From contig GG745336.1 of the NCBI GenBank assembly GCA_000151295.1, positions 1,333,124-1,380,953 on the forward strand: 47,830 nt of DNA, read 5' to 3'. Shown in pieces: positions 29,474 to 47,308 of the stretch. The translations under genes were made by a program, and so were the position numbers. Numbering within the stretch: the first letter of the stretch is position 1; every line of letters begins with the position of its first letter. The notes beneath the pieces were generated by a model. That model was not told where the DNA came from. It searched no databases and worked only from the letters and a program-made list of their open reading frames with translations. Origin of the DNA: Allomyces macrogynus ATCC 38327 (Eukaryota; Blastocladiomycota; Blastocladiomycetes; Blastocladiales; Blastocladiaceae).

Positions 29474-29479
29474 GGAAGA

Positions 29480-29500
29480 GGGGGGAGGGGGGGGGGAGGG
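29480..29500. repeat. G-rich run between convergent genes
   Basis: A nearly pure G tract, interrupted by two A bases, lies just after the stop of the orphan membrane protein. It could form a G-quadruplex on the plus strand. Confidence 0.6.
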
Positions 29501-29642
29501 AGTGAATCAAAATGCAGACAAACATGAATGAAACTGGTATTCCAATTCTTCAATGATCTTGTCTTGCGTGCAACAACATCCGTGGCCCAGTTCGTCTTTC
29601 TGCAAGTCCTCTCGTCTGGTCCAGTTCTTCTGCTCGACATCC

Positions 29643-30740
29643 TCACCACGCGTGCAGTCCGCCCCCGGCTCCCCTCGCCGCCCCACCGGCCAACGCCGCC
29701 ATCGCCATCGCGACCGCCGTCGACCCACCTCCACTCTCCACCGGCACCGCCGCCGCCGTGCGCGTCAGAACTAACACGACGGGCGTTTCCCTAACCGCTG
29801 GCGTCTGCACTTTACACTTCAGTTCCGCGACCTCGTTCGGATTCGCCAACGCGTACCCACACTCCATAACCTGATTCAGCAGCGCGACCACATGCGCGCG
29901 CATCAGCGTATTCGTCTGCCCGACGTCGCCAATCACGTTCCCGCCCCTTGCACCACCCCCACCACCTTCCAGAAAAACGAGCCGCCCGGGGTACGGCCAC
30001 GGCGGATCCGTGTTGACTCGTGCGCGGAATTCGGCTGGGTAGATCTCGACACACATGGCGAGTTCCGAGACTTCGATCGTCGCGGACCGCACGCCGATCC
30101 CGTATGCGCGACGCGCCATTTCGGGCACGAGTCGTTCTTCTTTTGCGGTCCATGAGACGCGCACGGTGACGAGGGCTGGGGTTGGGTGGGAAAGGGTGAC
30201 GGCGAGCCGGCGGTGTTGTGCGAGGACGGTCTTGGCGTCGTGGAGGTACCCGTAAAAGTCCAGTTCTTGCGCGAGCGACAGGTGCGTGCAAAGTGGGCGC
30301 GGGTCGGGCCAGTCGTGTGGGGTGCCCGATGAGAAGTTGGTTGGGGAGGAGGTTGGTGGAGACCGCGCGCGGCCACGGTATGTGGAGGCGGATGAGGAAG
30401 AGGGCGAGGTTGACGGGGTGCCAGCGGTGGGGGATCCGGGACTGCCGAGCGGGACGGCATGCCGCCGGCGCAGGTGGGAAAGAATGAACGCGAAGATGGC
30501 CGGGTCACGGTCGATGAAGAGCGGCGGGTCGCGCGGTGCGTTGTCGCCCAGGTCGCGGATCGAAAGGTGGTGCAGTGTGCGAAAGAGGCCCGTTTCTGGA
30601 TCGTTGCCAGTCGCGAGCGTCGACCAGTACGTCGTGAACAGGTGGCCGCCAACGTCGAGTGTGACGGCGCCGGGCGGCAGAGGCGCGGCGTGGTGGGATG
30701 ATTGGCTGCAGGCCGAGAAGCAACAACGACAGGACGGCAT
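29643..30740 (-). CDS. BTB/POZ (T1-type) domain protein
   Basis: GAVTLDVGGHLFTTYWSTLA is the hallmark first strand and turn of the KCTD/Kv-T1 class of BTB domain. It is followed by GLFRTLHHLSIRDLGDNAPR, then FIDRDPAIFAFILSHLRR, where the family has an F-x-D-R-D-P-x-x-F-x-x-I-L-x-x-L pattern. A Ser/Pro-rich insertion of about 55 residues interrupts the domain before LAQELDFYGYLHDAKTVLA, the usual C-terminal helix. The rest (ALVTVRVSWTAKEERLVPEM onward) is an unrecognised beta-rich domain with a Gly-rich tail. Such proteins often serve as cullin-3 adaptors or oligomerisation modules. The start is placed at 30740 (MPSCRCC), giving 365 residues. The frame is open to an ATG at 31007, but that extension has noncoding-like composition. 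Confidence 0.75.
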   Translation of the reverse strand: MPSCRCCFSACSQSSHHAAPLPPGAVTLDVGGHLFTTYWSTLATGNDPETGLFRTLHHLSIRDLGDNAPRDPPLFIDRDPAIFAFILSHLRRRHAVPLGSPGSPTAGTPSTSPSSSSASTYRGRARSPPTSSPTNFSSGTPHDWPDPRPLCTHLSLAQELDFYGYLHDAKTVLAQHRRLAVTLSHPTPALVTVRVSWTAKEERLVPEMARRAYGIGVRSATIEVSELAMCVEIYPAEFRARVNTDPPWPYPGRLVFLEGGGGGARGGNVIGDVGQTNTLMRAHVVALLNQVMECGYALANPNEVAELKCKVQTPAVRETPVVLVLTRTAAAVPVESGGGSTAVAMAMAALAGGAARGAGGGLHAW

Positions 30741-31302
30741 GCGGCCAGGTTCGCAAGGGTTCGTTGACGGAAACGGCGTCGAAGAGACTGCGTGGGCATA
30801 CGTGACGGCGTGATCATGGTGATTCGCAGATTGCGCGTGGTGAGGATGGTCACGCGCGCTCGTCGGTGTGCACGGGGACGGCAGTGCGCCGCAAGGCGTG
30901 GACCATGGCTGGCCGGACGTTGTTGAAGTCAGATCTGGAGTAGTGGCGAGGTGCAGCGAAGGGCGACACGGCGCGCTACTGGCGTGGCGTGTGCTGGGCG
31001 AATCCATGGCGCGGATGCTCTATGCGCGATGCGGAAAGTTGGTGCCCTAAAATGTTGGCGCCGTCGCCGTCTTCGGCGACCGCGGGCGGCTGCATGGCGG
31101 AAGGCGCGGACGTCACGACAGTCGAACAAAAAAGCTGACGATGGCATGTCTCGCACTGCAGTTTCGCGTCTCGCAGCGCTGCGCGTGTTGGTCACGGTTC
31201 ACCAAGTCAGACCCTACTTGCCGTTCTCCTTGTCGACGGTCGGAGCCAATGTTCGCCACGCGCCGAGCTCCGCCCCAACGGGCTTCACTCAACAAACACG
31301 CC
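30741..31302. promoter_or_regulatory. Divergent spacer, BTB gene / USE1
   Basis: Promoters of both genes are expected here. If the BTB protein starts at 31007 instead, the spacer shrinks to about 295 bp. No specific site is recognised. Confidence 0.35.
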
Positions 31303-32570
31303 ATGACACTCGCTGCAACAGTCCACCCCGAGTCAGCACGCGTGGCCGATACTGTCCCCGCTGGTGCCGACGACGTGACGCGCGCACGCATCAATACCGA
31401 CCGCCGCCTGCACCGCCTCGAGACGCATCTCAGCACGCTTCTCGACGACCCCGACAAGCGACAATGGCTGGCGCTGGTATTGCGAAACCGGACCGACAAA
31501 TTGAGTGCAATGAACAGTGATTGACGCTGCTCGGTGCCGTGTGCAGAATGTGGCTGACCTGCACCAAGTCCTCGACAAGCTCAAGACGTCACTGTACGGC
31601 GGACATCCGCATTCGCATCGCAACGAAGCGAGCGCTTATTCGCTACCGAACGAACCCGTAGCTCTCCCAACGATCCGGTTCTCGTCAACTACGCGGAACG
31701 GCTGCGTCGCTTGCAAGCCGCCGTGCAGCACAACAAGGTGCATTGCGAACAGAAATGGATCCCTCTGCGCACGTCCATCAGTTTCTCATTTCCCTTGCTG
31801 TTGCTAGGCGTCCGTGGGCCTCCCCAAGTTTGAGCACCAGGCGTTCCGCCTGCCCAACGTGCCGCACGCCGATCTACTCGCGCAGCTGCAGCAGCAGGTA
31901 CAGCGCAACCGCGATGCGCACGAGGCCAAGCGGAGGGAGCTCTTGGTGTGTTGTGACCACATTCCTCGCTTGACCGCTCACGAGTTTGCTGACATATCTT
32001 TTACGTGGCGTTAGGATCTGCCGAGCGACGCGACTAATGCACCCACCGGCTCCGCAGCCCTGAAATCCATCCCACCGCCTACACTCGAATCGCTCGCGTC
32101 GGCTTCGGCCACGTCCACCGCGTCGCTGCGCCAGCGGAGGCTACCAGGACGGTACGATTGCCATTTCCCTCGATTCTTCGCGCAAATCGCTGCTGACCCA
32201 TCGCACTCCGTTCACCCCACGTAGCGATACGCGGTCCTCTCCAATCAACACCGCCGACTCGAAAGACGTCTCCGAGGTGCTTCAAATGCACGACAAGATG
32301 CAAGACGAGCTCGTGCAGAACCTCGCGTCAATGGCGTCGGTGCTCAAGTCCAATGCGCGCGCCTTTTCGCACCACTTGCAGACCGACTTGCAGGTCGTCA
32401 ACGACGCGTCACAGATCTTAGCCAATAACACGGCGCGCATGGACAAGGAGGCCGACCGGCTGAAACAGTACCGCGCGTCGAGTCGGTGGACGACGTGCAC
32501 GCTGGTGCTCGTGTTGTTGGTCATGATGGGGGTCACGGCGGGCATGTACATAGTGATCAAAATCTTTTGA
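31303..32570 (+). CDS. USE1: ER SNARE USE1
   Basis: USE1 is a Q-SNARE of the ER that acts in Golgi-to-ER retrograde fusion. Six exons are inferred: 31303..31476, 31547..31593, 31662..31737, 31808..31945, 32015..32151 and 32225..32570. They total exactly 306 codons (305 residues). The N-terminal helical region has RRLHRLETHLSTLLDDPDKR and ADLHQVLDKLKTSLSPNDPV, then YAERLRRLQAAVQHNK. The C-terminal exon holds the SNARE helix, MQDELVQNLASMASVLKSNA followed by FSHHLQTDLQVVNDASQILA, and a tail anchor, TCTLVLVLLVMMGVTAGMYI, ending VIKIF. The first donor is GTATTG at 31477, chosen because the more obvious GTGCAA at 31505 gives the wrong phase. This is the most intron-dense gene here; all five introns are 68-73 bp. 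Confidence 0.85.
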
Positions 32571-32618
32571 GAACAATCCAAAAAGAAGTCGTGAATTGAT
32601 TCATGGATCGGAAAGGTC

Positions 32619-33508
32619 CTAACTGCGCTTGGCCAGCTCCTTGGCCACGGCACGCTCAATATGCGCCTGCAACAAATTCCCGAGCGACGGCTTACTGCCC
32701 TCCGTCGCCGTCTCCTCGGCCTCGGGCGCGCTCCCCAGCATGCCCACGACCACGCGCTCGACGTACTTGCCGAGCATGTCGACCTCGACATTGACCGTGT
32801 CCCCAACCTTCTTGAGCGGCATGACCACATGCTCTTGCGTGTACGCGACAAGCATGATCGTGAACGTGCGCGCCGTGTCGTTCACGTCGCAGACGGTCAG
32901 GGACGTGCCGTCAAGCGCAACGTAGCCCTTGGGGATCAGGTACGGCAGGAGGGACCGGTCCGGCAGCGTGAATTCGAACCGCAGCGAGTTGACGTCGGGC
33001 GTGATCTTGGAAATGGTCGCGGTGCCGTCGACGTGGCCCTAAAATGTGGCACGGCGTGATCAGTGTGGGTTCCCTGCATGCGGGTCCCACGTAAGTCATG
33101 GCGGACTGTACCTGAACAAAGTGTCCACCGAACCGCGTGTGCGAGGTCCATGGCGCGCTCGAGGTTCACCTTGGCGCCGACTTGCAGCTTGCCGAGGTTC
33201 GTGCGCTGCAGGGTTTCCGGCGCGAGACCCGACCTTGAACGTCGACTCGGTGAAGGCCGTCACAGTCAGGCACGTTCCTGGTGGACAGCGGCGCGCGCGC
33301 ACGACGACCGTCAGTCCCATTTGTCTGGGATCATTCATTCAAGCGGAGAGCGTGCAGGACGCCTACCATTGACCGCAATACTGTCGCCCAAGTGGCAATC
33401 GCCGAGAATGGCCTCGGCGCCGCCAATCGTCATGGTCCAGCCGCCGTCCGTGTCGTGCTCAATGATCTCGGCGACATGGCCCATAATCTCGACAATGCCC
33501 GTGAACAT
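32619..33508 (-). CDS. RIB5: Riboflavin synthase
   Basis: Riboflavin synthase converts two 6,7-dimethyl-8-ribityllumazines to riboflavin plus the pyrimidine precursor, the last step of vitamin B2 synthesis. The start MFTGIVEIMGHVAEI is diagnostic. Exon 1 is 33508..33367. Exon 2 (33277..33112) reads TCLTVTAFTESTFKVG, LAPETLQRTNLGKLQVGAKV, then NLERAM and TRFGGHFVQ. Exon 3 (33038..32619) begins GHVDGTATISKITPD and holds the second lumazine-binding repeat, IPKGYVALDGTSLTVCDVND, ending AKRS and TAG. Introns are 33278..33366 and 33039..33111. Two one-base insertions in exon 2 (about 33228-33230 and 33134-33148) break the frame. Removing both gives 241 residues, the family length, and consistent splice phases. 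I take them as sequence errors, but an inactive gene is not excluded. Confidence 0.85.
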
Positions 33509-34079
33509 CTTGGTGGTGGTTGGTTGTTGAGGTTGTCGGAAGGGATGACAGTGCGGGGGTGTCGAGACTGCTGCAGCCGATCCGTCGTGATGCGTTGTTG
33601 GAGGAGCGCGGCGGCGTGGGGGGTGGTGCAGCGGATTTGTATTCCTCGTGCCAGGGGCCAGCGTGGTCGCGCGACTGTGCTCGCTGTCGTGGTGGGCGGG
33701 TCCATGGTGGTTGGAATGGCGGAAGATTCGGGGCGGGCGGGAACGGCTGTTTGTCAGGGGCATGCAGAATGACGGCGCGGCCTGGTGATCGCTGACATAC
33801 ACTCCACTGTACACGCGCCTGTTAGTTACTCGGCTTGGGCCCTGGCAAAGAAAAAGAGCAGCAACCGGTCAGGTGAGCCTGACGCGCAACAACCTCCCGC
33901 TTGGGCTCGCTTTCCGTGACGACAAGGCGGTGACAACGGCAGCAAGCACGGCGCGGACGACGACAGGACGCCGCAATCGCAGCGACAGCATCTGCAACGC
34001 AACGACGCTCTGACCGCATTCGACCCGGAACCGCATCCATCGCCAACCACCACCACCTTCGGCACCACCCACAATCACC
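33509..34079. promoter_or_regulatory. Divergent spacer, RIB5 / NUG1
   Basis: About 570 bp between diverging starts. No TATA box, and no FMN riboswitch-like fold that I can recognise. Only short frames with no domain. Confidence 0.35.
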
Positions 34080-35997
34080 ATGGGCAAGCGGCAACCCGCC
34101 CAGCAAAAGGCCAAGGCGCTCAACAAGACGCGCGAGGCCGATCGCAAGGCCAAGAAAAAGGACCCGAGCCTGCGGTCCAGTATGTTGCGCTTTGCACAAA
34201 TCGACTCCACCATGCGTTCCTCGAATCTGACCCCTTGCGCGCGCGCGTCTGAACAGAGGCGCGCAAGGACCCGGGCATCCCGAATCTCGCGCCGTTCAAG
34301 GCCAAGCTGCTCGCGCAGGCCGAGGAATCGCAGGCACAGCTCGCCGACAACAAGGCGCAACTGCGGCAAAGGCGACTGGCCATGCAGAAGGCGGCGCTGC
34401 GCACGGCCGCGGGTCATTTCGCCAGCGCGCCGCCCACAGCGGAAGAACCGCAGTGGCAGGAGCAGTCAACCAAGCAGTCGCAGGGCGCTTACTACCGCGA
34501 ATTCCAGAAAATCATGGAAAAGGCCGACGTGATCTTGCAGGTGCTCGATGCGCGCGACCCGATTGGCACGCGCGCTGTGCACGTCGAAAAAATGATTCTC
34601 GAGTCGGGTACGGGCAAGCGCGTGATATTGGTGCTCAACAAGGTGGATCTCGTGCCCAAGGACAACGTGCAGCAGTGGCTCGCGTATTTGCGGCATGAGT
34701 TCCCGACGATTGCGTTTAAGGCCAGCACGCAGGCGCAGCGCCGGAACTTGGGGCAGGGGAACGTGCGGATTGAGCATGCGACCGAGGCGATGCTGCAGTC
34801 GTCCGAGTCGATTGGTATTCTTCTTCGCTTTAGTTCCGTGCTTGACGCCCAGTGTGCCACAGTGCTCACCCCATTGCTGCTCATGTAGGTGCCGACATTC
34901 TCGTGAAGCTGCTGAAAAACTACTCGCGCAACCAGGACATCAAGACGTCGGTCACGGTCGGTGTGATCGGGTACCCGAACGTGGGCAAGTCGTCCTTGAT
35001 TAACTCGTTGAAACGCGCCAAGGTCTGCGGCATCGGCGCGACCCCGGGGCTCACCAAAGTCGTGCAAGAAATCCACCTCGACAAGAACATCAAGCTGCTC
35101 GACTGTCCCGGCATCGTCTTCTCACCCGAACGAGCCGACGCGACTTGGCAAGAACGCGCCGCCGTGCAATTGCGCAACTGCATGCGCGTCGAGTCGCTCG
35201 CGGACCCGATCACCCCCGTCGAACTGATCTTGACCCGTGCCGCACCCGCGACGCTCTGTGTGCTGTACGGGATCCCGCCGTTCAAATCGACCAACGAGTT
35301 CCTGTTTCATGTGGGCAAGGCGCGCGGCAAGTTGAAGCGCGGTGGGGTGCCGGACGTGGAGGACGCGGCGCGCGCCGTGTTGAACGACTGGAACCACGGC
35401 AAGATTCCGTACTATTCGGTCCCGCCGAAACGCGATTTGGGTGGCGGTGCCGCGATAGTTGACCAGTTTGCCGACCAGCTCGACTTGGACGCGGGGCTCG
35501 CATCGCTCATGTCCGAGCAGGAACTGGGCGCCGAGTTTGCGGCGCGACACGCGCAGGGCGGTATGGACGTGAGCGACGACGACGATGAGGACATGATGGA
35601 CGACGATGACGACGTCATGGACGAGGACGACGACGACGACAGCGACGATAGCGACGACGGCGCACCGTCTGACGCGATCGTGGTTCCGGATCTCGCATCG
35701 ACCGGTTCGCGCAAGCACGCGGCGCTCTTGCGCGCGGCCGAGAGCGAGGATAGTGGTGCTGCGCCGGGCCGCGCACGAAAGCAGATGATCATGACCGACG
35801 AGGAGGCCGCGCTCAACCCGCGCACCAACCAGCAGCGGCGTAAGCAGGCCAAGCAGGCGCGCAAGCTCGCGGCCAAGCTCGAGGGCAAGATGAGCGATAA
35901 CGTGCGCGCGTGGGTGCAGGGCGATGTCGACATGGATATGGATGAGGCGCCGGCCGACGCGAATGAGTTTGATTTCGGCGAGTTTGCGCGGATGTAA
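34080..35997 (+). CDS. NUG1: Nucleolar GTPase NUG1 (GNL3/nucleostemin family)
   Basis: This circularly permuted GTPase is needed for 60S subunit maturation and export. Exons are 34080..34179, 34257..34814 and 34889..35997, giving 588 residues with no frame break. The basic N-terminus MGKRQPAQQKAKALNKTRE, then KARKDPGIPNLAPFKAKLLA, is the family's nucleolar and RNA-binding region. The GTPase motifs come in permuted order: DARDP (131-135), G4 NKVDLVP (from 161), G1 GYPNVGKSS (247-255), a TPGLTK G2 segment, and G3 DCPG (291-294). GIPPFKSTNEFLFHVGKARG and the following helices form the RNA-binding domain typical of the family. The C-terminus has a long Asp-rich tract (about 35570-35660) and a Lys/Arg-rich segment, both common in nucleolar proteins. 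An AATAAA signal lies 76 bp after the stop. Confidence 0.92.
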
Positions 35998-36073
35998 GAC
36001 GGCAGGCGTCGTGTCGCGGCCTGGGTTGGACGGTCGATTTCGGTTTCGTTGTTCTCGGTGTGTCTTTTTGCTC

Positions 36074-36079
36074 AATAAA
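36074..36079 (+). terminator. Polyadenylation signal of NUG1
   Basis: AATAAA, 76 bp downstream of the NUG1 stop at 35997, on the coding strand and ahead of the next gene's 5' UTR. Confidence 0.5.
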
Positions 36080-36329
36080 CAGTACCCTCTCCACCGGGCG
36101 TTGTTGCGGTGCGGCCGCGTCTTCGTCGGCAAAGTGAGAGAGCCGGGCAGCGGCAGTTTTGTGATCAGAAACAGATGGGCGGAAGGGACCGGAAAACTCG
36201 ACACGTTGCGACTTGCAGCCTCACTTCGAAAAGCCTGCCAACCGCTGCTCTCTCTCTCTCTCATCTCTCCCAGCAACACTTCACCATCTTGCACCGAGAA
36301 GCGACGACGAGTGAAAGCACTCGAGCGAG

Positions 36330-36375
36330 AGCAGCAGCAGCAGCAGCAGCACGAGCAGCAGCAATACGAGCAGCG
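36330..36375 (+). repeat. CAG/AGC tract in the presumed 5' UTR of the CobS-like gene
   Basis: About seven uninterrupted AGC units followed by interrupted ones, 45-90 bp upstream of the ATG at 36421. No coding frame from this tract leads into the gene without a stop that I can see. Confidence 0.6.
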
Positions 36376-36420
36376 CGGTAGTCCAGGCCGCAACACCTTT
36401 ACTTATCACAAACCAGCACC

Positions 36421-37683
36421 ATGGGTCGTAAAAAAGCCGGCAGCAAGGCCAAGTCAGCTAGTCCCGCAATGGTCCAGGATGTCACGGAGCGCCCGGACAG
36501 TGCGGTCAGCGCGCCCGTCGTCGAGGAGGACCCGTTTGCGCCGCCCGTCAAGACGGACCGTGGCGACCTGAACCGCTATCTCAACGAGCAGATCCCCGAC
36601 AGTGTGCTGAACGGCATGTCTTTTTGGATGCACGAGTACCAAGCGTTTTTGACGGGCATCATGTTCTTTACGCGGCTGCCGTGCCCAACGTGGGTACGTG
36701 CGATGCGCCGCTGTGTAGTGATCAAGTGAAAACGCACGACATGTGGCTGATAATGACGACCCTCGCATACCAGGTCGACCATAACCTGTACTGGATCTCG
36801 CAAAGCACCGTCTACTTCCCGCTGATCGGTACCAACGCGCTCTTACCCTCGCCCGGGCCCACTCCCTCCACCATCTTACCTCCCGCTCGAACCTTTCTCA
36901 CACCATTTCACCAGGCGTCATCGTCGGCTTGTTCGGCACGATTGCGTACAAGTTTGCCGCCTTCCTGTGGCACCCAACGATCGGCGTTCTCTTTTCGACC
37001 CTCGCGACCGTCTGGCTCACCGGCGCCTTCCACGAGGACGGTGTCGCCGATTGCTTTGACGCATTTGGCGGCGGATGGGGTAAAGCCGAGATCTTGCGCA
37101 TCATGCGCGACTCGCGTCTTGGCACCTACGGGTGCATCGGGCTCGTCTTGGTCCTCGGCGCGAAACTGTCGGGCCTGAACTTGTTGCTCGGTGGGCTCAC
37201 GCCCGTGACGACGCCGGTCATGGTCTTGTCGCCGATGGTGCTTGTGGCGGGGCATGTCATGTACGTATTTTTTCCCCGCAACGACTCAGTCCTAGGCGCT
37301 GACACGTAAAATGTAGGGGCCGGTGGGCGTGCGTCTACCTCCTCTACGCACACCCGTACATGGACGACGCCGCGCAATCCGCACCGGGCAAGCACTTTGT
37401 CCTGTACGTGACCCCCATCCGGCTCGTGGTTGGGACCGTGACGGCGTTTGCGTTCACGGCGTGGGCGCTGCAGGGTTCGCTCTACCATCTCGCGCTCGTC
37501 TGGGTGCTCGGTATGGCCACGACGATTGCCGCGGGCCGGTACATTGTCTCGATTTTGGACGGCGTGATTGGTGATTCGTTGGGTGCGGCGAACCAAATTG
37601 TGGAAGTGGTCACATACCTCGCGCTCGCGGTGCGGCCGCTGGATGTGGTTGCGGCCGAGTTGGTGGCGGTGGTTGGGCTGTGA
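36421..37683 (+). CDS. CobS-family adenosylcobinamide-GDP ribazoletransferase
   Basis: Bacterial CobS, an integral membrane enzyme, joins adenosylcobinamide-GDP to alpha-ribazole (or its phosphate), releasing GMP and giving cobalamin (or its phosphate). Four exons (36421..36693, 36774..36828, 36915..37260, 37317..37683) give 346 residues in perfect frame. After a 70-residue hydrophilic extension, CobS motifs come in the family order: FFTRLPCPTW (82-91), FPLIG (106-110), TGAFHEDGVADCFDAFGGG (145-163) with the conserved acidic cluster, EILRIMRDSRLGTYG (168-182), GRWACVYLLYAHPY (from 226), and GDSLGAANQ (310-318) before the last membrane helix. Introns are 80, 86 and 56 bp; two fall inside CobS motifs, so this is a nuclear gene and not bacterial contamination. 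No other cobalamin gene is in the window. The catalytic motifs look intact. The physiological role is an inference: lower-ligand attachment or remodelling of scavenged corrinoids. Confidence 0.85.
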
Positions 37684-37912
37684 GTGGGGTGGAGGAGGGT
37701 GGGGAGTGCTTGCGTTGCGCCAGTGTTTAGCGGATAGCAAAATGAATCTTGTATAGAGAGCGTGTTGTATCAAATCACGACAACAGCGAGGGGGAAACGA
37801 AACACACGGGGAGCAAACAAGGTCTACACAACAACAAAACCTTCTCGTGCCGCGTCGCACAGTGACACGGCACAACGGGGCCGGGAAAACAACAATTCTG
37901 GACGCGAATCTT

Positions 37913-39306
37913 CTACTCGGCGCGCACCGGCACCGGCGGGACCGGCACCTCCGTCCACGCCTCTGCAGCCCGCGGGGACACGGGCGCATCAATCTTTTGG
38001 GAAAACCCCGGACAATCCGTAAAAGATCGGTCGGTTCCCGGGTTCCCCCTTCGGGGGGGCGCCCCCCGGGGGGGGCGGGGCCCCGCGGGTGGGCGCGGGC
38101 CCCGCGGCAGGCGGCCACAGCGCAAGTGCGCGGTCCGTATCCACATCCGGATCGACCCACGCAGGCATCATCGAGTCCGGGCGCTGAATCGTCCCTTGGG
38201 TCGCGTCCGTCAAACCGGCGACAGACCACAGCGACGTACGCGGGTTGGTCGCGGCGGCCGAGACGCGTTTGGCCGTTCCCGCCGTCACTGCAACGGGGGA
38301 CACGGGCGGCGCGTTGTTATTCTCAAGTTCGAACGCCAGCGGCGGGAGTTTCGGCGCGACCATGGGCACGGGCGGGACGGGCGGAGCGGGCAACGGCAAT
38401 CGACGATCCGCGCGGCGAAACGCTGTTCACCAGACTCCCACCTTCGTACGCGGTGGTCGCAGTGGTCGCGGTCGTGACCGTCGACGACGACACGCACGAC
38501 GCGCCATCGCCCCACGTCGACCGCACGTTTCGAACCGTCAGTGCGCGGCGCGGGACGGCCAGTGTCGCCTTTGGCGCCGAGGGCGTATCGGGCACAACGA
38601 CGCGAGGGGTCAGCCCAACGTCCGACGCGGACGGTGCCCATGCGGGGGCCCACGTGACGGATTGCACGGATTCGAGTGTTGAACGCTTGAGTGCGCGGTC
38701 GACGGAGGCGAGGAACGTGGGGGAGGGCGCGGCGCGCGCGCCCGGACTGGTTGGGGTCGTCGACCCCGTGCGGGGGACGGTGCCATTGTTCTCGTCGTCG
38801 GCGGACCGCTGGCCAAGGAGGGTGCGGATCGACCGCGCAACCGTGTGCCACCGGCCAGTCGACAGCTTGGACGACTTGGTGGAGGTCGACAGGTTCGACC
38901 GGACCGACCGCGGCAGGGACGGCGGGTTGGCCGACGCGGGGGTCCCAGGCGACGCAGGCGGGGCCGTCGTATCGGCCGCACGCCGCTGCTTGTTGCGGCG
39001 CGCGACGGTCACGCCGAGCGCGACGAGGCCAATCACGACCGCGGGGACAACGACAGCGAGGGCGAGGACGGCGGGCGTCGAGAGCGCCGCGCCCGAGGCG
39101 GCCGTGGACGCGCCGAGCGTCGCGGTCGGGGTCGGATCGACGGCGCCGCCGGCCGCGGCCTGCAAGTTACGCGCGCCGTTCGAATTCGATGCAGGCCAGA
39201 CGGTCGCGGTCGGGTCCGTTGTGGCGGTCACGGCCGCGGGCACGGGGACCACCGTCGCGGCGGGCACCCCGTCAGCGCGGCGCACGAGCGTGTATCGGGG
39301 CGACAT
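37913..39306 (-). CDS. Orphan single-pass membrane protein, Ala/Thr/Pro-rich
   Basis: No family is recognised. The ATG at 39306 (MSPRYTLVRRADG) opens an Ala/Thr/Pro-rich, probably O-glycosylated outer region. One membrane segment follows, VLALAVVVPAVVIGLVALGV (about residues 80-99), then a basic stop-transfer ARRNKQRR. The cytosolic part is Ser/Thr/Pro-rich (SLPRSVRSNLSTSTKSSKLS). The frame breaks at about 38400-38412, after which a good reading continues as APKLPPLAFELENNNAPPVS and SLWSVAGLTDATQGTIQRPD. It breaks again inside the GC palindromic tract (38041-38110), after which SFTDCPGFSQKIDAPVSPRA leads to a TGA at 37913. Removing one base at each break gives 463 residues. No signal peptide is present at this start. 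The topology resembles the orphan at 27353, but I see no clear sequence similarity between them. Confidence 0.55.
38041..38110. repeat. Extreme GC palindromic tract
   Basis: About 70 bp with almost no A or T. It contains runs of five to eight C or G and perfect palindromes such as ggggggcgcccccc and cggggccccg. It lies within the 3' coding part of the minus-strand orphan, exactly where the reading frame changes. Confidence 0.8.
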
Positions 39307-40413
39307 GGTGGACGAGGACCGAGGGAGTACGGGCGGGGATCACGACGCGCGTGTCGGTGATCGAGTTTGGTTCGTTGGGGGTTGTTGTTGCACGAGTGGC
39401 GACAGCCGGTGCAGGATTTGTCTTGCCGAGCACGTGCGCGTTCGTCAAAAGAAGTGGCACCACCAAACCAACCGGCCTCCCACCAGTGCACGGCGGGCCG
39501 AATTCGGTTTTCACGAGAGGGTCGGAGCGTGGAGCGCGCAGCAGAGGTGCCGAGGCATTCGTCGGCCAGCGTGCAACGGCGGGCAGCGGGTCGCTTGCAG
39601 GCGCGTGGGGCTGCTCGAGAGTGTCGTCAAAGTGATAGGCCGCAGGAAAATTGGCCAGTTGCGCCGATCCAGTCTATGGCGCCGGGATGGGCGCGTGGAT
39701 TGCGGGCAGAGGCGCGGCAGCGCGGGCAATGGTGGGCCGTCTATGGGGTGTGGGGGTCCCGGGGAGTGGTCGCGGTCGTCGACAGTGGTTGCGGCTGTTG
39801 AGCCCGCGTTGCGTTGGTCATGAAGCATGAATTGGCCATGAAACGTGAGATGGGCCACCGTTAACACATCTCGATATTTGTGATATTTCCGGCATCGTCA
39901 CAGATCCTCGCCCAGAATGAACACGACGCGCGCAAGCGACATGCATAAGTGAAGAAGAATGCAACAAATGTCTGCCCTGCTCGGACCCACGTAAGTGTGG
40001 CAGCGTCGTCGCCAACATCCAGCAACAGGCTTGTTTCTGGCCCGTGGTCCGAAGATTGACGGGCCAAGATCCTTGCGAAATACGGTGGAGAAGCCGCGGA
40101 GGAATCAAACGGCGCGTTGGACGCGCGGGAGGGGTGCGTGGTCAGAGATTGGCGGTCTGATTCAGTCTGGTTCCGTGAGACGGCGTCCACGGCCGCCGTC
40201 TCCTCAAAAAATATGACGGGTCGTCGTCATCAAGTAGCACGGGCCTCACGAATGCCTTGCTGTCCTGGCATCGGGTGTCCCTCCTCGACGGTGCTGCCGC
40301 TCAGAGAACCACGCAGGCACACCATCTATTCACGCCGCTCTACCCCGGCCTCCCAACGCACGCACACAACTAATACCCGACGGCCCCTGACCAGGCCGAA
40401 CCCAACCGCTCCG
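39307..40413. other. Intergenic between orphan membrane gene and F-box gene
   Basis: The promoter of the orphan membrane gene (39307 upward) and the 3' region of the F-box gene lie here. Frames around 39860-40190 have no recognisable domain. No repeats or RNA genes seen. Confidence 0.35.
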
Positions 40414-41703
40414 CTACGCTTCCATCGGATCCGCGGCGGTACACCGCGCACACAAGCTCCCCTGCCGTACGGCGCCATCATTCCAGCACGCCCAGCAGTA
40501 CCCGACACCACACCGCGGACACGCCCAGCCTTGGTAACACGCGCTACAATTCGCAAGCGCCTTGCGATGCTGCGGGCAATAAAAGTACCCGAGCCCGCCA
40601 TCAGCGCGGATCGGGATCATCGTACTTTCATCAAACATGGGTCCACCCGGCTGCGCGTCCGGATTCGCCGCGGCCCACGCGCGCATGGCCGCTACGGGCA
40701 CGACCAAGGAGGTGGAGGACGGCGGCGGCGGGAAATCGACGGGCACCCACGGAACCGCGTGCAGGCGGCACCGCGAGCAGACGCGCGCGAGGAATGCGTC
40801 GGTCGCGCAGGTACTGCAGTCGCAGTTGAGCGAGTCGTCTTCGCACTCGGGACAAATGTCGACGGGCGCGTTACAGTGCCGGCATGCCAGCGGGCTCGGG
40901 ATCACTTGGTGGCACGGCGTGCACAGTTGCACATCTGGGACTTGGATGCCGGCAGAGCGGAGCGTTACGGCCAGGTCGGCCGTGAGCACGTCGGTCTCGT
41001 CGAGGTAGACGCGCTCGATGCGCGGGAGTGCTGGCATGTAGGTCGGTGCGATGGAAGTGGTCGCTGCGGGGACGGGCAACGGGGTCGCGGGTGCGAGCCA
41101 CGCGAGAAGCTGGTGGCCGACCGACTCGGGCTCGCCACCGTCGACAGATTGCTGCGCGGGCGACGCGGCCACGTGCAGTTCAAAGCACCGCACAAGCGAC
41201 ACTGCACGGGCGCTCGGGAATGCGCGCACAATGTCTCGCGCCGCGTGGGCAATGGGCGTGTCCGAGAGGTTGACGACGGTCACGGCCGTTCGCCACGGCG
41301 CGTACGCGGTCGCGAGCAAGAACCTCAGTACGCGAAAATCGTAGACCATGTGCGACGGTGAACTGGCAGCCTCGGCGGCCATGATCACCAGCGGTGACGG
41401 GGGCAGCACCACGTCACGCAGCACGAATACACGCCATGGAAGCCGCGTCCGGAACAGAAGTGCAGCGCGAATGGCGCGACATGTCGGCGCGAGAGCGAGT
41501 AGCAGCGTGCGCCAGTCGATGTAGCTGCCGATATGTCCGAGCAGCTCGCATGGCAAGTCGTCGAGCCTTGGGCGACGCGGCGGGTGGTGGTGGTGGTGGT
41601 GATGATGATGGCGATGATAAGGGTTGTGCTGGTGCTGGTGTGCGGGCGGCGGCAGCGTTGCGGCAAGCGGCGCGCTGATAGCGCCGGGCGCGAGCGGGTC
41701 CAT
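40414..41703 (-). CDS. F-box protein with His tract and two Cys-rich clusters
   Basis: The start at 41703 (MDPLAPGAISAPLA) gives 429 residues in one exon, ending at a TAG. A His-rich N-terminus includes nine consecutive His. It is followed by LDDLPCELLGHIGSYIDWRT and LLLALAPTCRAIRAALLF, a good F-box fold (L-P-x-E-L-L ... C-R). F-box proteins recruit substrates to SCF ubiquitin ligases. The middle has leucine-rich-like segments (AVTVVNLSDTPIAHAARDIV and ARAVSLVRCFELHVAAS). The C-terminus carries two Cys clusters, CTPCHQVIPSPLACRHC with CPECEDDSLNCDCSTC, and YCPQHRKALANCSACYQGWA with CPRCGVGYCWACW ... CARC. Both look able to bind zinc. I know no family with exactly this combination. Confidence 0.72.
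   Translation of the reverse strand: MDPLAPGAISAPLAATLPPPAHQHQHNPYHRHHHHHHHHHPPRRPRLDDLPCELLGHIGSYIDWRTLLLALAPTCRAIRAALLFRTRLPWRVFVLRDVVLPPSPLVIMAAEAASSPSHMVYDFRVLRFLLATAYAPWRTAVTVVNLSDTPIAHAARDIVRAFPSARAVSLVRCFELHVAASPAQQSVDGGEPESVGHQLLAWLAPATPLPVPAATTSIAPTYMPALPRIERVYLDETDVLTADLAVTLRSAGIQVPDVQLCTPCHQVIPSPLACRHCNAPVDICPECEDDSLNCDCSTCATDAFLARVCSRCRLHAVPWVPVDFPPPPSSTSLVVPVAAMRAWAAANPDAQPGGPMFDESTMIPIRADGGLGYFYCPQHRKALANCSACYQGWACPRCGVGYCWACWNDGAVRQGSLCARCTAADPMEA
41583..41610 (-). repeat. His-codon tract
   Basis: A run of CAC/CAT codons on the minus strand encodes nine His in the F-box protein. Both codons are used, so this is not a pure trinucleotide expansion. Confidence 0.8.
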
Positions 41704-42969
41704 GGTCAAATGGTCGTCGGCGCGGTTCAGTTGGTCAACGTGGACGGGGCACGGTCGGGTGAGGAGGCGGGACGGAGAGAGAGGACAGGCGACAATCCAA
41801 GGCCCCAGTTTTACGCCGACGCGTTTGCCTACGTATTCGCCACGACACGACCGATTCGCCACACACTCGCGTCAGTCGGTGCATGCTCCAAAAAAACATC
41901 CTTTACGCCGTCCACCCACGCCAACGAACGAAGGCCCGGTTGAGGCCGAGCCCCCGGGCACAGGCCACCGGATTCTGCACTTGTTGTGCCGCGCGACGTG
42001 GGAAAAGTGTCGACGTACGAACAACCTCCTCACCTGTGAACTACTGCTCGCGGCCGGTTGCGCAGTCAGTCGCCTTGGCTTCAAGAGACGACGACCGTGT
42101 TGTGCGAGAGCTGCAGCCCCGACAGTAGTGGAAAAGTTGCCACGGGCAATCAGGGGCGTGTGTTGGCGTCGGCGGCGTCGCACACAGTACGAGTCCAGAC
42201 GAGGGTCAAGTACGACCGAGAGCGGGCCGATGAAGACAGGTGTGGGCGAGCCGAGAGCGTGGCGCACACCCTGACCATCGTGCTCTGGCGTGCACACCAC
42301 TTGCGTGTCGCAAAAGCCGACACGAAGCGTGCGTGTGTCGCCAGGATAACTCGGTTGCTGCGGCTTCGAGAATACAGCCAGGTCGCCGCGGCCAGCTGGC
42401 GTGAGGCGGGAATAGGACGTCGCGGCCAATGACACGATCCAGCTCAGGCGCGTTCCACGTCCAGTCGGATCCACTTGCAGCTCGTTTGTATTGAGGAAAT
42501 GTCGGGCAACACGGGTTGGCGGGGTAATAAATATGGAGTGCCGCAAGTTGCGTTCGAGTTGGATGGCCACTGGTCGCGCCTTGGCTGGTCGCGCAGCAGC
42601 ATGCCAACACCTTGAGCAACTGGCGCGTCGGAGAAAATCAAGTTGAAATCAAGCCGTGATCAATCGGGCCGATCGACGACCAGGAGCCTCCCCTGGCGGC
42701 GCTCAAGACAGCAATCACCTGATCGACAGCTCTGGGGCAGTTTGGACCACGTCATCCGCTTCGCTCGGAATTTGCCGAGACAGCAGCCCTGTCGCCGCTG
42801 TGGTTTCTGGCCGCTGCCGTAACTCATCCCCCACTCCAACCCCGGCAGCGCAACTGGCCGCACTCGCCCGTGCACTCTCCGGTGCATCTGCTGCTGCTGC
42901 TGCTGCCGTACCGCCGCCCTCGTTCGTCTGGCCGCCCGCCCGCTTGCTCGCCCCGACAGACCCGCCGCC
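41704..42969. promoter_or_regulatory. Divergent spacer, F-box gene / TFIIB copy 1
   Basis: About 1.27 kb holding both promoters. The longest frame (41872-42570, minus) has no domain and a noncoding-like composition. No TATA box lies within 150 bp of the TFIIB ATG at 42970, unlike copy 2. Confidence 0.35.
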
Positions 42970-44348
42970 ATGGACGACAACTTTTTCCGCGCCGCGCAGC
43001 AGGGCACGGCACCCGACCTGCTCCCGGGCGCGCACGGCGACGCGCACGCCGCGCAAAAGTACCGGCAAGTCACGGCCAAACAGCAAGTCGACCTGAACGT
43101 GAAGCTCATCTGCCAGTTTTGCCGCGACCCAGTGCCGAACCTGATCGAGGACTTCAAGCAGGGCGACTTGATTTGCGGCAACTGCGGCACCGTCTTCAAG
43201 GACCGGATCATCGACACGCGGTCGGAATGGCGCACGTTTTCGTCGGACGAGGGCGGCGATGACCCGTCGCGTGTGGGTGGGGCCGAGAACCGGTTGCTTG
43301 GTCCCAAACTGAACCTCGAAACGTCAATTGGTGGGGGGTTGCATGCGGATAAGCGCGAGTTGGCCAAGACACACGCCAAGACGTCGGTCGTGCGGTCGGA
43401 AAAGATTTTGCTCGAGGGGTTCCGCACGATCACGGCCATGGGCGAGCGGATGGGATTGAACCGCAAGATTATCGAGGCCGCCAAGCAGTACTTTAAGATG
43501 GCCGAGACGGGCCAGCCGATCAAGAAGATTGAAGCGACCGTCGCGGTCGCACTGCTGCTCGGGTGCCGCAAGTGCGGTGCCGACCGATCGCTGCAGGAGT
43601 TTGCGTCCATGATCAACATTAGCAAGACAGGTACGCTGTGGATCCGCGGGTTGGTCGTGGAGTGTCGCTCGGTGGTATTCTTGGCTCGCACTGACCCAAC
43701 GTCACGCACTCTTCTCGTTCTCTCTTGTCCTCGCTCCTCGCTCTCGACTTGATCGCCACTTTGAAACTTGTTTTATGACTCGACTCTTGGAATCGAATCA
43801 CGTTACGACCGACGCGCACAATGCCCCCTCCACTTGCCCGGCTCGCCGCCACTGCTTTGCTGTCATTTGCACCGCTTTCCGTTTGCCACAACTCAGAATT
43901 CGGCAAGGTGCTCAGCCAAGTCAAAAACACGCTGCGGCAAGCGAGCCAGCAACAGCAGCAAGCGTTGTCGGCGACCGCGGTGGCCCCCGTGGCGGGCGAC
44001 GACCACGATGCGAACCCGACCACCAACAATGCCGGCGCGCTCGCGCGACGGTTCTGCAATGCCCTGAATCTGCCGATGCCCATGGTCAATTCGGTCGTGG
44101 CCGTGTGCGACCGCGCTTACACGATCACGGAAATGGCGTCGCGTAATCCGCGCACGATTGCCGGCGCTGCGATTTACTTGGTCACGCACCTCTATGGGCA
44201 GCCGGTCGCCGCCAAGACGGTCGCCAGTATGGTCAAGGTCACGGAGAACACGGTGCGCCAGGCGTACCGTATCGTGCGTGGGAACTTGGAGGCGGCGTTG
44301 CCCGAGGATCTGTTGAAGATGGATACGTCGCGGCTGCCCGCCAATTGA
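42970..44348 (+). CDS. Transcription factor IIB, copy 1 (with intron)
   Basis: TFIIB bridges TBP and RNA polymerase II at promoters. Exons are 42970..43630 and 43897..44348, giving 370 residues. The N-terminal zinc ribbon has C48, C51, C69 and C72 (CQFCRDP ... CGNCG), followed by the B-reader motif DRIIDTRSEWRTF. The two cyclin repeats follow: FRTITAMGERMGLNRKIIEA and ATVAVALLLGCRKCGADRSL, then RRFCNALNLPMPMVNSVVAV, TIAGAAIYLVTHLYGQPVAA and SMVKVTENTVRQAYRIVRGN. The intron (43631..43896, 266 bp, GTACGC...CAG) is longer than most introns here and lies between the cyclin repeats. A second, intronless copy lies 860 bp downstream in the same orientation. Confidence 0.93.
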
Positions 44349-45207
44349 TGGCGGCGGCGCGGCGTCGTTGGCGGGATTCGTTGCTGGTGGACTGGCGGTC
44401 GGGCGGCTTCGCGGGTGCGCCTGCACGGTTTTGGTTTGGTTCCGTTTGGGGGGTTTGTGAATTTGGCTGGACGTGATTTCTGCTTTGTCTTCTTGTTGCC
44501 TGTCGTCACTCTAAACACGCAAATATGCACAACAAAGCGATCCTTAAGCCTTGTTGCAGCAGCACCACATCTTGACGATGGGTGCCGTGGGCCTAATGGC
44601 TCGTCTGCACAGTGTGCTTGAGTCTGACACTCATCCAGTGGTGGCCTCCAGCTCGAATCTGGGCGCTGATATAAAGCATAAGTGCGACTACTAGTTTGAA
44701 GATGGCCCCCAGGTTTCGCACCGCCTTCTTTTGTCGAACACTGGCCCAGAAATTCTCTCATGTACACTGATCCAGGCAGCATCAGTCACCTATGCTGATT
44801 CTCCTTGTCCCTCACCATTGGCATCCTTCACACCAGCTACACATTTTAGCAGGCTCGGAGCCACGCATCTAGGCCAGTCGGGGTCAGGTCCGGTCGGTCG
44901 CTCTGCTTCGTCTTCAAGATGGCTTGCAGTTCCGCCAAATGTCAACGCATGAGTCACGAAAGACGCAGAACAGTGCCAAACCGTCTGGATGTTGCCCAAC
45001 AAACATGGTGTCCAAGTCATCCAAAGCGGCGGTCGCAAGTCGCAACCAAGTCATCCAGCGACCCATTTCCTCTCTTGCCGAGATATAAATGCGTCGCCCC
45101 TCTCAGTCCCATCCATTTCGCTAAAACACTGCCCTCGTTGTCAACGCACGCTCCTGGCACGCCCGTTGCTGCTCGCCCCACGGTTTGCTTTCCCCATCGG
45201 GTCCACC
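44349..45207. other. Spacer between the two TFIIB genes
   Basis: It carries the 3' region of copy 1 and the promoter of copy 2, including the TATA box noted separately. No target-site duplication, poly(A) tract or other retroposition scar is obvious. Confidence 0.45.
45084..45090 (+). promoter_or_regulatory. TATA box of TFIIB copy 2
   Basis: TATAAAT lies 118 bp upstream of the ATG at 45208. Copy 1 has no comparable element near its start. Confidence 0.5.
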
Positions 45208-46317
45208 ATGAACGCCAGCTTCTACCGGACCGCGCAGCAGGGTTCCACGCCGGACCTCCTGCCGGCCGTCGCAAATGGTGCCAACGCTCATGCCGTGGCT
45301 GCAAAGTACCGGCAGGTGACGGCCAAGCAGCAGATCGACTTGAACGTGACACTCATCTGCACGTACTGCCGCGACCCAGTGCCCAACCTGGTGGAAGACT
45401 TCAAGCAGGGTGACCTGATTTGTGGCGACTGTGGAACCGTCTTCAAAGGCCGGATCATTGACACGCGGTCCGAGTGGCGCACGTTTGCAGACGAAGGTGG
45501 TGACGATCCGTCGCGCGTGGGCGCGGCGGAGAATCCGCTGTTGGGCGCGAAGTTGGGGTTCGAGACGAGTATTGGAGGCGGGAAGTTTGCGCCAGATCAT
45601 CGCGAGTTGGCCAGGGCGCACGCGAAAACGTCGCTCGCGCGGTCGGAAAAGGTGGTGCTTGATGGATTTCGCGCGATCATGGCCATGGGCGAGCGGATGG
45701 GTCTGAACCGCAAGATAATCGACGCCAGCAAGCAGTACTTTGTGCTGATCGACAGGGCCCAACCCATTAAGAAAGTGGACGAGACGGTGGCCGTGGCTGT
45801 CTTGCTCGGGTGCCGGAAATGTAGGGCTGACCGCTCGTTGCAAGAAATTGCGGCCTTGATCAAGAAGAGCAAGCATGAGCTTGGCAAGGTGCTTCTCCAG
45901 GCCAAGAAGGCGTTGCAAGGCATGCCACACGACGACTCGTCGTCGTTGACGCCCATGGTGTCGCCAGCGCCGGCCGACACGAACACGGCCGCCGTGAATG
46001 CGGGCACGTTGTCGCGCCGGTACTGCAACGCCCTCGGCCTATCGATGCCCGTCAGCAATGCGGTCGTGGCTGTGTGCGATCGCGCCTACACAATCACTGA
46101 AATTTCGTCGCGGAACCCGAAAACGATTGCGGGTGCCGCGATTTATCTCGTCACGCACCTGCATGGGCAACCGGTGGAGATGACGGCGGTCGCAAGCATG
46201 GTCAAGATGACCGTGGGCACGGTGCGACAGGCTTACCGGATCATGCGCACCAATCTCGACACGATGCTGCCCGACGAGTTGAGGACAATGTCCACGGCGA
46301 TGCTGCCCACGAGCTGA
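45208..46317 (+). CDS. Transcription factor IIB, copy 2 (intronless)
   Basis: A single exon of 369 residues starting MNASFYRTAQQGSTPDLLP, aligned end to end with copy 1 (MDDNFFRAAQQGTAPDLLP). The zinc ribbon (CTYCRDP ... CGDCG) and B-reader (IDTRSEWRTF) are intact. Both cyclin repeats are present (FRAIMAMGERMGLNRKIIDA, AVAVLLGCRKCRADRSLQEI, RYCNALGLSMPVSNAVVAVC and TIAGAAIYLVTHLHGQPVEM). Where copy 1 has its 266-bp intron, copy 2 reads straight through as KKSKHELGKVLLQAKKALQ. The two proteins differ mainly in the linker (ALQGMPHDDSSSLTPM) and at scattered sites, so both appear to be under constraint. The frame is open about 220 bp further upstream, but homology begins at 45208. Confidence 0.93.
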   Translation: MNASFYRTAQQGSTPDLLPAVANGANAHAVAAKYRQVTAKQQIDLNVTLICTYCRDPVPNLVEDFKQGDLICGDCGTVFKGRIIDTRSEWRTFADEGGDDPSRVGAAENPLLGAKLGFETSIGGGKFAPDHRELARAHAKTSLARSEKVVLDGFRAIMAMGERMGLNRKIIDASKQYFVLIDRAQPIKKVDETVAVAVLLGCRKCRADRSLQEIAALIKKSKHELGKVLLQAKKALQGMPHDDSSSLTPMVSPAPADTNTAAVNAGTLSRRYCNALGLSMPVSNAVVAVCDRAYTITEISSRNPKTIAGAAIYLVTHLHGQPVEMTAVASMVKMTVGTVRQAYRIMRTNLDTMLPDELRTMSTAMLPTS

Positions 46318-47308
46318 TGGTCTAATGCTGGGTGGCCAAGCGATGAGGCATGCGCGCAGAGCGTTTTGTCCTTGATTCGTTGTTGTTAATTCTTTCGATC
46401 TGCACGCTATTTATCACCCCATCCATTCCTTGGCGATACGGCCCTGTGCATAAAACATGTCATAAATATACATTCATCCATTGTGATATCATGCCTGGGT
46501 CATGGCAAGACGCCAGTGCGGCCAGAATTCTGCAACTGATCGGACTGTGATCTCTGCTGGACGCGAGCAATGTCATGTCCACTGGCTCCTCCCCGCGTGA
46601 AACCACCAGGTGGAGAAGGTTGTCCTTGGTCCTCGGGGCCGATTCCAGGAGCAGTTGGTGCAATTCGCGTCCAGTGCGTTTGCAAGGAGCCCATCTTCTC
46701 GGTCGACCTTGAGCAACATCTAGGTGAGGCCGCCTAGCCGTGGTTCAGTCAAGACGTGTTGCTGCTGACGGTACTGGACATGGCCACAACAGGATCCGAC
46801 CGACCGCTCGACCTTTTCCGCTGGATCCGAATTGATCGATGGGCGGCGAGTCTGGATGACGGAGTACGGCCGTAAGTGGTCGCAACGGACGCGAGGGACG
46901 TTGGTCGGCGACTCTGGACGTGTCTCTTCTCCGCGCTGGCTGCATGGTGGACCAACTTGACTGGAGTATTCCTCCCTCCTCGAGACTGCCACCCCGCGGG
47001 GTCAAGCTCACGAAGACAACAACAGAACTACGCGGATCACGAACCGATAACGAAACGTCGATTTACTGCTAAATGAAAATGAAAAATCCCGCGATCCAGG
47101 ACACCCACCCATCCCTCGCCCGAACTGGCACGAACGCACGCACGCACAACACACACCAAACACCAAGCAAGTGCAGAGCACGGACAAACGTAACCGAAAC
47201 CAATGAAACCAAATCCCCCAAACCACCCAAACCAAAACACTTCACTCACGGCCGACTCGCTGGCGAGCCCGAACCGCTGTGTCTCCTCCGGGTATCCCAT
47301 TCCCTATT
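46318..47308. other. Intergenic, lower GC
   Basis: Between TFIIB copy 2 and a convergent partial gene. The sequence is less GC-rich, with AT-rich stretches near 46380-46480. No coding, RNA or repeat feature is recognised. Confidence 0.4.

What the first reader, a model, noticed from the sequence alone, without database searches (positions are those of the whole stretch)
36421..37683. A spliced eukaryotic gene for a CobS-type cobalamin synthase in a probable fungus
The protein carries the CobS motif series in order (TRLPCP, FPLIG, GAFHEDGVADCFD, EILRIMRDSRLGTYG, GRW, GDSLGAANQ). Four exons add up to exactly 347 codons, with two introns inside conserved motifs. That argues against bacterial contamination and for a resident nuclear gene. 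De novo cobalamin synthesis is prokaryotic. Some eukaryotic algae are known to remodel imported corrinoids with CobT/CobS/CobC-type enzymes. A comparable step in a fungus would mean this lineage can attach or swap the lower ligand of scavenged B12 precursors. The 70-residue N-terminal extension could affect targeting.
Basis: partly seen in the sequence, partly recalled or inferred. Interest (0 to 1): 0.88.

Follow-up and report, generated by a model that had tools for sequence, protein, structure and literature searches.

The report
Fungal vitamin B12 tail-swapping gene
This fungus carries an intron-containing gene of the bacterial vitamin-B12 family CobS together with a partner CobT gene, and the pair would likely let it turn scavenged B12 look-alikes into usable B12, a trick previously reported in bacteria and algae.

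Summary
Window 36421-37683 is a four-exon gene (346 aa plus stop) matching Pfam CobS at E 5e-42, with the two motifs needed in Salmonella CobS intact. It is resident: the 54 Mb genome (genus Allomyces, inferred from 95% protein identity) holds a second, diverged copy with the same three intron positions, an equal-length coding part and dN/dS 0.069, inside a ~20 kb stretch of shared gene order. It is not unique: 13 fungal species in the hit lists carry CobS. Fungal CobS forms one clade (100/97) and groups with algal and oomycete CobS (99/94; an AU test does not exclude another arrangement, p 0.18). The genome also has a spliced CobT, MetH, methylmalonyl-CoA mutase and adenosyltransferase. No CobU, CbiZ, CbiB, CbiR or BluB was detected, and no CobC over its cut-off. 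The best reading is cobamide remodelling, as proposed for algae. Because the corrinoid-activating enzymes are missing, Chlamydomonas remodels pseudocobalamin but cannot use cobinamide, and one bacterial CobS is known to take part in remodelling, a bolder reading stays open: CobS itself may swap the lower ligand of intact cobamides. Splicing and activity are untested. New member of a known kind, with a testable mechanism.

The parts
36421..36693 (+). CobS exon 1 (start codon, N-terminal extension, to TRLPCPTW)
   Evidence: splice model; same exon in second copy
36694..36773 (+). intron 1, 80 bp, GT-AG, phase 0
   Evidence: position shared with C59 copy (84 bp)
36774..36828 (+). CobS exon 2 (VDHNLYW to FPLI)
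36829..36914 (+). intron 2, 86 bp, GT-AG, phase 1
   Evidence: position shared with C59 copy (69 bp)
36915..37260 (+). CobS exon 3
   Evidence: PF02654 exon match
37031..37060 (+). motif HEDGVADCFD (HxDxxxDxxD), residues 149-158
   Evidence: motif needed in Salmonella CobS, PMC8092220 passages
37261..37316 (+). intron 3, 56 bp, GT-AG, phase 2
   Evidence: position shared with C59 copy (68 bp)
37317..37683 (+). CobS exon 4, with stop codon
   Evidence: PF02654 exon match
37561..37584 (+). motif GVIGDSLG (GxxGDxxG), residues 307-314
   Evidence: motif described in PMC8092220 passages
28046..47811 (.). stretch that shares gene order with contig C59 (reverse strand), which carries the second CobS copy
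   Evidence: blastn, 80-82% identity in the three pieces that cover most of 28046-44542, 69-76% in the rest

Best explanation
This is a spliced nuclear CobS gene of a fungus, present in two diverged copies with dN/dS 0.07, whose protein is predicted to work with the fungus's CobT to replace the lower ligand of scavenged cobamides and so likely yield cobalamin for its B12-dependent enzymes. Shown here: the gene model, the family match, the intact motifs, the second copy, the spliced CobT gene, and genes for MetH, methylmalonyl-CoA mutase and adenosyltransferase. Inferred from the known families: CobT would make alpha-ribazole phosphate from scavenged dimethylbenzimidazole (DMB), and CobS, in a membrane, would join it to the corrinoid. 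Inferred and least certain: because no CobU, CbiZ, CbiB or CbiR was detected, CobS probably acts on intact pseudocobalamin-like cobamides, exchanging the old nucleotide loop for the new one, rather than on free cobinamide.
For: Family match over the whole profile. Motifs HxDxxxDxxD and GxxGDxxG intact. Second copy with same intron positions, dN/dS 0.069 overall and 0.041 for residues 71-346. One fungal clade, next to algae and oomycetes. Spliced CobT in the same genome, matching solved bacterial CobT by sequence at E 4.8e-37; a Quaeritorhiza CobT passes the curated CobT cut-off, 324.9 against 319.3 bits. CobS and CobT carry neighbouring locus tags in Quaeritorhiza and are listed on contigs of equal printed length in Quaeritorhiza, Paraphysoderma and Polychytrium; in 2 Aphanomyces proteins CobS is fused to part of a CobT. 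MetH, mutase and adenosyltransferase present. Algae with COBT and COBS remodel pseudocobalamin plus DMB (PMC4850488 passages). CobS of Vibrio is reported to be involved in remodelling (PMC7733943).
Against: No activity, transcript or metabolite evidence. The Allomyces CobS and CobT both score below NCBI's curated bacterial cut-offs. CobU, which makes the canonical CobS substrate, was not detected, and no CobC passed its cut-off. BluB was not detected, so DMB would have to be scavenged. In the capped listings several fungi show CobS without CobT (for example Phlyctochytrium, Cladochytrium, Podochytrium) and others CobT without CobS (Blastocladiella emersonii, Blyttiomyces, Dinochytrium). CobT has only one copy here while CobS has two.
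Confidence: 0.74

Rival explanations
1. Ordinary loop assembly with an unrecognised activating route: some phosphodiesterase frees AdoCbi-phosphate from imported cobamides and a CobY-like or other unrelated guanylyltransferase makes AdoCbi-GDP, so CobS does its usual job. (This overlaps with the general remodelling claim; it rivals only the direct-exchange step.)
For: CobS's known substrate is AdoCbi-GDP; known phosphodiesterase CbiR makes AdoCbi-P (PMC7733943). It also explains why cobinamide, which lacks the phosphate, fails in Chlamydomonas (PMC4850488).
Against: CobU not detected with two models, CbiR not detected. CobY was not tested.
Confidence: 0.4
2. Cobinamide salvage: the fungus completes free cobinamide to cobalamin as Salmonella does, with a CobU too diverged or too intron-split to be found.
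For: CobT and CobS are two of the salvage enzymes; the genome search works exon by exon and could miss a gene cut into short exons (caveat printed).
Against: 0 matches for PF02283 at E 0.001 and for NF004469 at E 1, while each rings in 6 of 14 control genomes; CobS and CobT were found despite their introns. Chlamydomonas did not grow on cobinamide plus DMB.
Confidence: 0.12
3. CobS and CobT have another role in eukaryotes, unrelated to the lower ligand.
For: No biochemical test of a eukaryotic CobS was seen here; both proteins score below the bacterial cut-offs.
Against: Intact motifs, low dN/dS, CobS-CobT neighbourhood and fusion, B12-dependent enzymes in the same genome.
Confidence: 0.1
4. 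Bacterial contamination, a dead gene, or a recent single transfer into Allomyces.
For: The family is best known from prokaryotes, and the rows next to the eukaryotic clade are bacterial and environmental.
Against: Three introns, a second copy with the same introns and dN/dS 0.069, shared gene order over about 20 kb, and a fungal clade of 13 further species.
Confidence: 0.02

Closest known systems
Algal COBS/COBT (Chlamydomonas reinhardtii, Pavlova lutheri; PMC4850488, passages)
   Same: Eukaryotic CobS and CobT in B12 users; cbiZ and cbiB not identified in the algal genomes there either; green-algal CobS (Raphidocelis, Chlamydomonas incerta) groups with fungal CobS in the tree.
   Different: Fungal host; remodelling not yet tested in a fungus; in Allomyces the genes are spliced and CobS is in two copies.
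Bacterial CobS, adenosylcobinamide-GDP ribazoletransferase (Salmonella; PMC8092220, passages)
   Same: Same Pfam family, motifs HxDxxxDxxD and GxxGDxxG.
   Different: Salmonella makes the substrate with CobU; none detected here. Allomyces CobS has introns and an N-terminal extension of about 70 residues.
Vibrio CobS in pseudocobalamin remodelling (known to me only through PMC7733943)
   Same: A CobS counted among enzymes with remodelling activity, acting on pseudocobalamin but not cobalamin.
   Different: Bacterial; whether the fungal enzyme shares the activity is untested.
B12 use in early-branching fungi (PMC8085122)
   Same: MetH, mutase, adenosyltransferase in non-Dikarya fungi, including Blastocladiomycota.
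   Different: That paper's eight enzymes do not include CobS or CobT, and its main text has neither word.
CbiR of Akkermansia (PMC7733943)
   Same: Solves the same problem, replacing an unsuitable lower ligand.
   Different: A different protein family; not detected here.

Membership tests
CobS (PF02654) | Significant match over the whole family profile | tested here: met
   E 5.3e-42, profile 2-207 of 207
CobS (PF02654) | Motifs HxDxxxDxxD and GxxGDxxG | tested here: met
   Residues 149-158 and 307-314 (motifs). M173 and R177 match Salmonella M104 and R108 by spacing only
CobS (PF02654) | Score over curated bacterial equivalog cut-off (TIGR00317 and the PRK00235 models) | tested here: not met
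   84.5 of 110 bits for TIGR00317; the other 4 listed models also below. The cut-offs are set for bacterial and archaeal annotation
CobS (PF02654) | Polytopic membrane protein | tested here: inconclusive
   Several hydrophobic stretches and an all-helical model of the A. arbusculus orthologue; no topology test
CobS (PF02654) | Transfers alpha-ribazole (phosphate) to AdoCbi-GDP | not testable with these tools
   needs an enzyme assay
Eukaryotic cobamide remodelling (algal type) | CobT and CobS in the same genome | tested here: met
Eukaryotic cobamide remodelling (algal type) | CobC present | tested here: inconclusive
   5 TIGR03162 matches, 0 over the cut-off, best 69.4 of 162.9 bits; the one scanned is PF00300
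Eukaryotic cobamide remodelling (algal type) | Uses pseudocobalamin plus DMB in place of cobalamin | not testable with these tools
   growth assay needed
Bacterial cobinamide salvage (CobU-CobT-CobS-CobC) | CobU present | tested here: not met
   0 of 1 genome with PF02283 at E 0.001 and with NF004469 at E 1; controls 6 of 14 each
CbiZ or CbiR remodelling | CbiZ or CbiR in the genome | tested here: not met
   CbiZ 0 of 1, controls 5 of 14; CbiR 0 of 1, controls ring in 11 of 14 but 0 over the cut-off, so a weaker negative
De novo cobamide synthesis | CbiB present | tested here: not met
   0 of 1, controls 8 of 14; other de novo genes not tested

The most novel reading that the evidence does not exclude
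Eukaryotic CobS is itself the missing remodelling enzyme: in zoosporic fungi and in algae it directly exchanges the lower-ligand nucleotide of intact cobamides for CobT-made alpha-ribazole phosphate, so two enzymes replace the bacterial salvage route, and fungi have inherited the pair since before Blastocladiomycota and Chytridiomycota split.
Probability: 0.35. Interest if true: 0.78.

Novelty: new member of a known kind. Interest (0 to 1): 0.6.

Why it matters
Fungi were deemed devoid of cobalamin until recently (PMC8085122 abstract). A CobS-CobT pair means that some fungi likely edit the vitamin as well as use it, which would let them live on the pseudocobalamin that cyanobacteria release (PMC4850488). 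It also makes an open question directly testable. A 2020 paper still speaks of a yet-to-be-discovered remodelling enzyme in algae (PMC7733943), and the pattern here, CobS and CobT kept while the known corrinoid-activating and tail-removing enzymes were not detected, suggests that eukaryotic CobS may be that enzyme.

Tried and rejected
Contamination and a dead gene were tested and rejected (introns, second copy, dN/dS, gene order). A recent single transfer into Allomyces is contradicted by the fungal clade. One common origin of eukaryotic CobS is favoured (99/94) but not proved: holding the fungal rows with the bacterial sister rows and shutting out algae and oomycetes was 15.8 log units worse but not rejected (p-AU 0.184). 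CobC: the three best-placed TIGR03162 frames that I read look to me like fructose-2,6-bisphosphatase (recalled resemblance), and the one scanned is only PF00300. The orthologue's model found no PDB relative at E 0.001 (0 of 258 matches up to E 10), and the protein has no solved relative by sequence at E 0.01. A link to riboflavin synthesis through the frame at 33335-33868, which begins like riboflavin synthase (recalled motif), was not confirmed: Pfam gave no family. The N-terminal extension (9 K/R, 10 D/E in 70 residues) gave no testable targeting signal. A plasmid search only showed ordinary bacterial CobS and was not used.

Papers: PMC8085122, abstract, part 1 of the results and passages. 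PMC4850488, PMC8092220, PMC10828217, PMC1550239, PMC10406608, PMC5592239, PMC9667741: passages only. PMC7733943: passages and section 13. 10.1093/femsle/fnaa171 is not held and was not read; the Vibrio CobS paper is known only through PMC7733943. Ten paper searches (listings) showed no paper on CobS or CobT in fungi by title or abstract start. PMC10406608 lists 'cobalamin synthesis proteins' among families lost in fungi, citing PMC8085122, without naming genes in the passages seen; its supplement was not seen.

Full report
What is there. The window lies at G000:C67:1333124-1380953 of a 54 Mb genome in 75 contigs. At 36421-37683 four exons join to 347 codons including the stop, with introns of 80, 86 and 56 bp, all GT..AG and none divisible by three. 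The 346-residue protein matches Pfam CobS over the whole profile at E 5.3e-42. Five NCBIfam CobS models match too, the best at 8.5e-57, all below their curated bacterial cut-offs.

It looks functional. In Salmonella CobS the motifs HxDxxxDxxD and GxxGDxxG hold residues whose change stops or weakens growth on cobinamide (PMC8092220, passages). The fungal protein keeps both: H149, D151, D155, D158 and G307, G310, D311, G314, with M173 and R177 at the spacing of Salmonella M104 and R108. I did not align the two proteins or compare the paper's other positions. The genome has a second copy on contig C59. Its coding part has the same length (1038 nt), its introns sit in the same three places with other lengths (84, 69 and 68 bp), coding identity is 89.5% against 57-72% for the introns, and dN/dS is 0.069 overall, 0.041 for residues 71-346 and 0.16 for residues 1-70. 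Window 28046-47811 and the fetched 19.9 kb of C59 share gene order, at 80-82% identity in the three pieces that cover most of 28046-44542 and 69-76% in the rest. This argues strongly against contamination or a dead gene. The organism is placed in Allomyces by inference: its CobS is 95% and its CobT 94% identical to A. arbusculus proteins; the species was not established.

It is widespread in zoosporic fungi. The listed hits (120 of 1277; 120 of 550) include 13 fungal species, two Aphanomyces oomycetes and two green algae. A tree of 81 rows puts the 15 fungal rows, with 3 unnamed environmental rows, in one clade (100/97). Inside it Allomyces, Catenaria, Blastocladiella and Paraphysoderma form a clade (99/95) and eight chytrid rows another (100/96); Quaeritorhiza, a chytrid by taxonomy, stands apart unresolved. 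Fungi, oomycetes, green algae and 5 environmental rows form a clade (99/94). Its neighbours are 20 environmental and 5 bacterial rows (92/87), including a Longimicrobium and a Rubricoccaceae protein and three labelled Bacteroidota. The link between oomycetes and fungi is weak (88/40), and a tree that shuts out algae and oomycetes is not rejected (p-AU 0.184), so one eukaryotic origin is likely, not shown.

CobT belongs to it. The genome has CobT at one locus on C63 (3 exon matches): three exons, two GT-AG introns, 376 aa. It matches 10 distinct solved sequences, best E 4.8e-37, and scores below the two NCBIfam CobT cut-offs; a Quaeritorhiza CobT passes both. In one search (120 of 4791 hits listed) 11 fungal species have CobT. 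Six of them also appear in the CobS lists (A. arbusculus, Catenaria, Paraphysoderma, Polychytrium, Quaeritorhiza, Nowakowskiella JEL0407), besides this genome; a seventh name is cut off as 'Blastocladi' and I labelled it Blastocladiella britannica in the tree by assumption. Other species show only one of the two in these capped lists. In Quaeritorhiza the two proteins have neighbouring locus tags; there and in Paraphysoderma and Polychytrium both are listed with contigs of equal printed length, which I read as the same contig. Two Aphanomyces proteins fuse CobS to part of the second half of CobT, but that CobT part is very diverged (end branch 6.8 or more). Fungal CobT is one clade (100/98, with one environmental row), with a long-branch warning for Paraphysoderma.

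B12 context. MetH activation domain: 3 matches, 2 over the full profile. Methylmalonyl-CoA mutase: 4 matches at 2 loci, the long one of each crossing one TAG, perhaps an intron. Adenosyltransferase: 8 matches on 4 contigs. A B12-uptake-like protein (CBA1) is reported in Allomyces macrogynus (PMC10828217, passages), and expressed B12-dependent propionate enzymes in Blastocladiella (PMC1550239, passages). Not detected: CobU with two models, CbiZ, CbiB, BluB, CbiR. For CobC, 5 matches, none over the cut-off. These searches work exon by exon. They found CobS, CobT, mutase and adenosyltransferase despite gene pieces, but a gene cut into short exons could be missed, and the CbiR control had no genome over the cut-off.

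How it most likely works. CobT would activate imported dimethylbenzimidazole, and CobS would place it on the corrinoid. The canonical corrinoid substrate needs CobU, which was not detected. Two published facts point to another route. Chlamydomonas, in which COBT, COBS and COBC were identified but cbiZ and cbiB were not, uses pseudocobalamin plus DMB, yet cannot use cobinamide plus DMB (PMC4850488, passages); failure to take up cobinamide would also explain this. And CobS of Vibrio is reported to be involved in remodelling, acting on pseudocobalamin but not on cobalamin (PMC7733943). So I infer that eukaryotic CobS may exchange the nucleotide loop of intact cobamides. A phosphodiesterase plus an unrelated guanylyltransferase fits the same facts and is the main rival; CobY was not tested. 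I give 0.74 to remodelling in general and 0.35 to direct exchange by CobS; the first rival overlaps with the general claim.

Comparison and novelty. Eukaryotic CobS/CobT is known from algae, and its evolutionary history was left open there, with Aphanomyces and Sphaeroforma as best non-algal hits (PMC4850488). Fungal B12 use is known (PMC8085122), without mention of CobS or CobT in its main text. Ten paper searches showed no report on these genes in fungi in their listings, while public records already carry CobS names for several of these fungal proteins. So this is a new member of a known kind, with a bold mechanism that is not excluded. The model of the A. arbusculus orthologue (mean pLDDT 84.9, 46 sequences) is helical with a low-confidence N-terminal part (residues 1-60) and has no PDB match at E 0.001.

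Noticed in passing
window 42823-43752 and 44953-46317, + strand: Two neighbouring TFIIB-type frames (zinc ribbon plus TFIIB repeat), apparently a tandem duplication.
   Followed up: partly
window 34253-35997, + strand: Frames with GNL3L/Grn1 and MMR_HSR1 GTPase domains just upstream of CobS.
   Followed up: partly
window 33335-33868, - strand: Frame that begins like riboflavin synthase (recalled motif); Pfam gave no family. Interesting only because DMB derives from flavin in bacteria.
   Followed up: partly
window 24263-26251 (-) and 12850-15351 (+): NOL10-like and SYO1-like proteins; the second frame crosses a run of N at 13091-13316.
   Followed up: no
P0241, Chytridiales sp. JEL 0842: CobS joined to an acyl-CoA ligase in one 929-aa record; perhaps a gene-model fusion, as the CobS end is cut short.
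   Followed up: partly
P0031 and P0242, Aphanomyces: CobS fused behind part of a much diverged CobT; the CobT half may have lost or changed its activity.
   Followed up: partly
G000:C63:46638-47897 (L008:4639-5898): Spliced CobT, found at one locus only, whereas CobS, MetH and mutase have two or more.
   Followed up: partly
   Followed up: no
window 5262-6749, - strand: A long glutamine-rich open frame.
   Followed up: no
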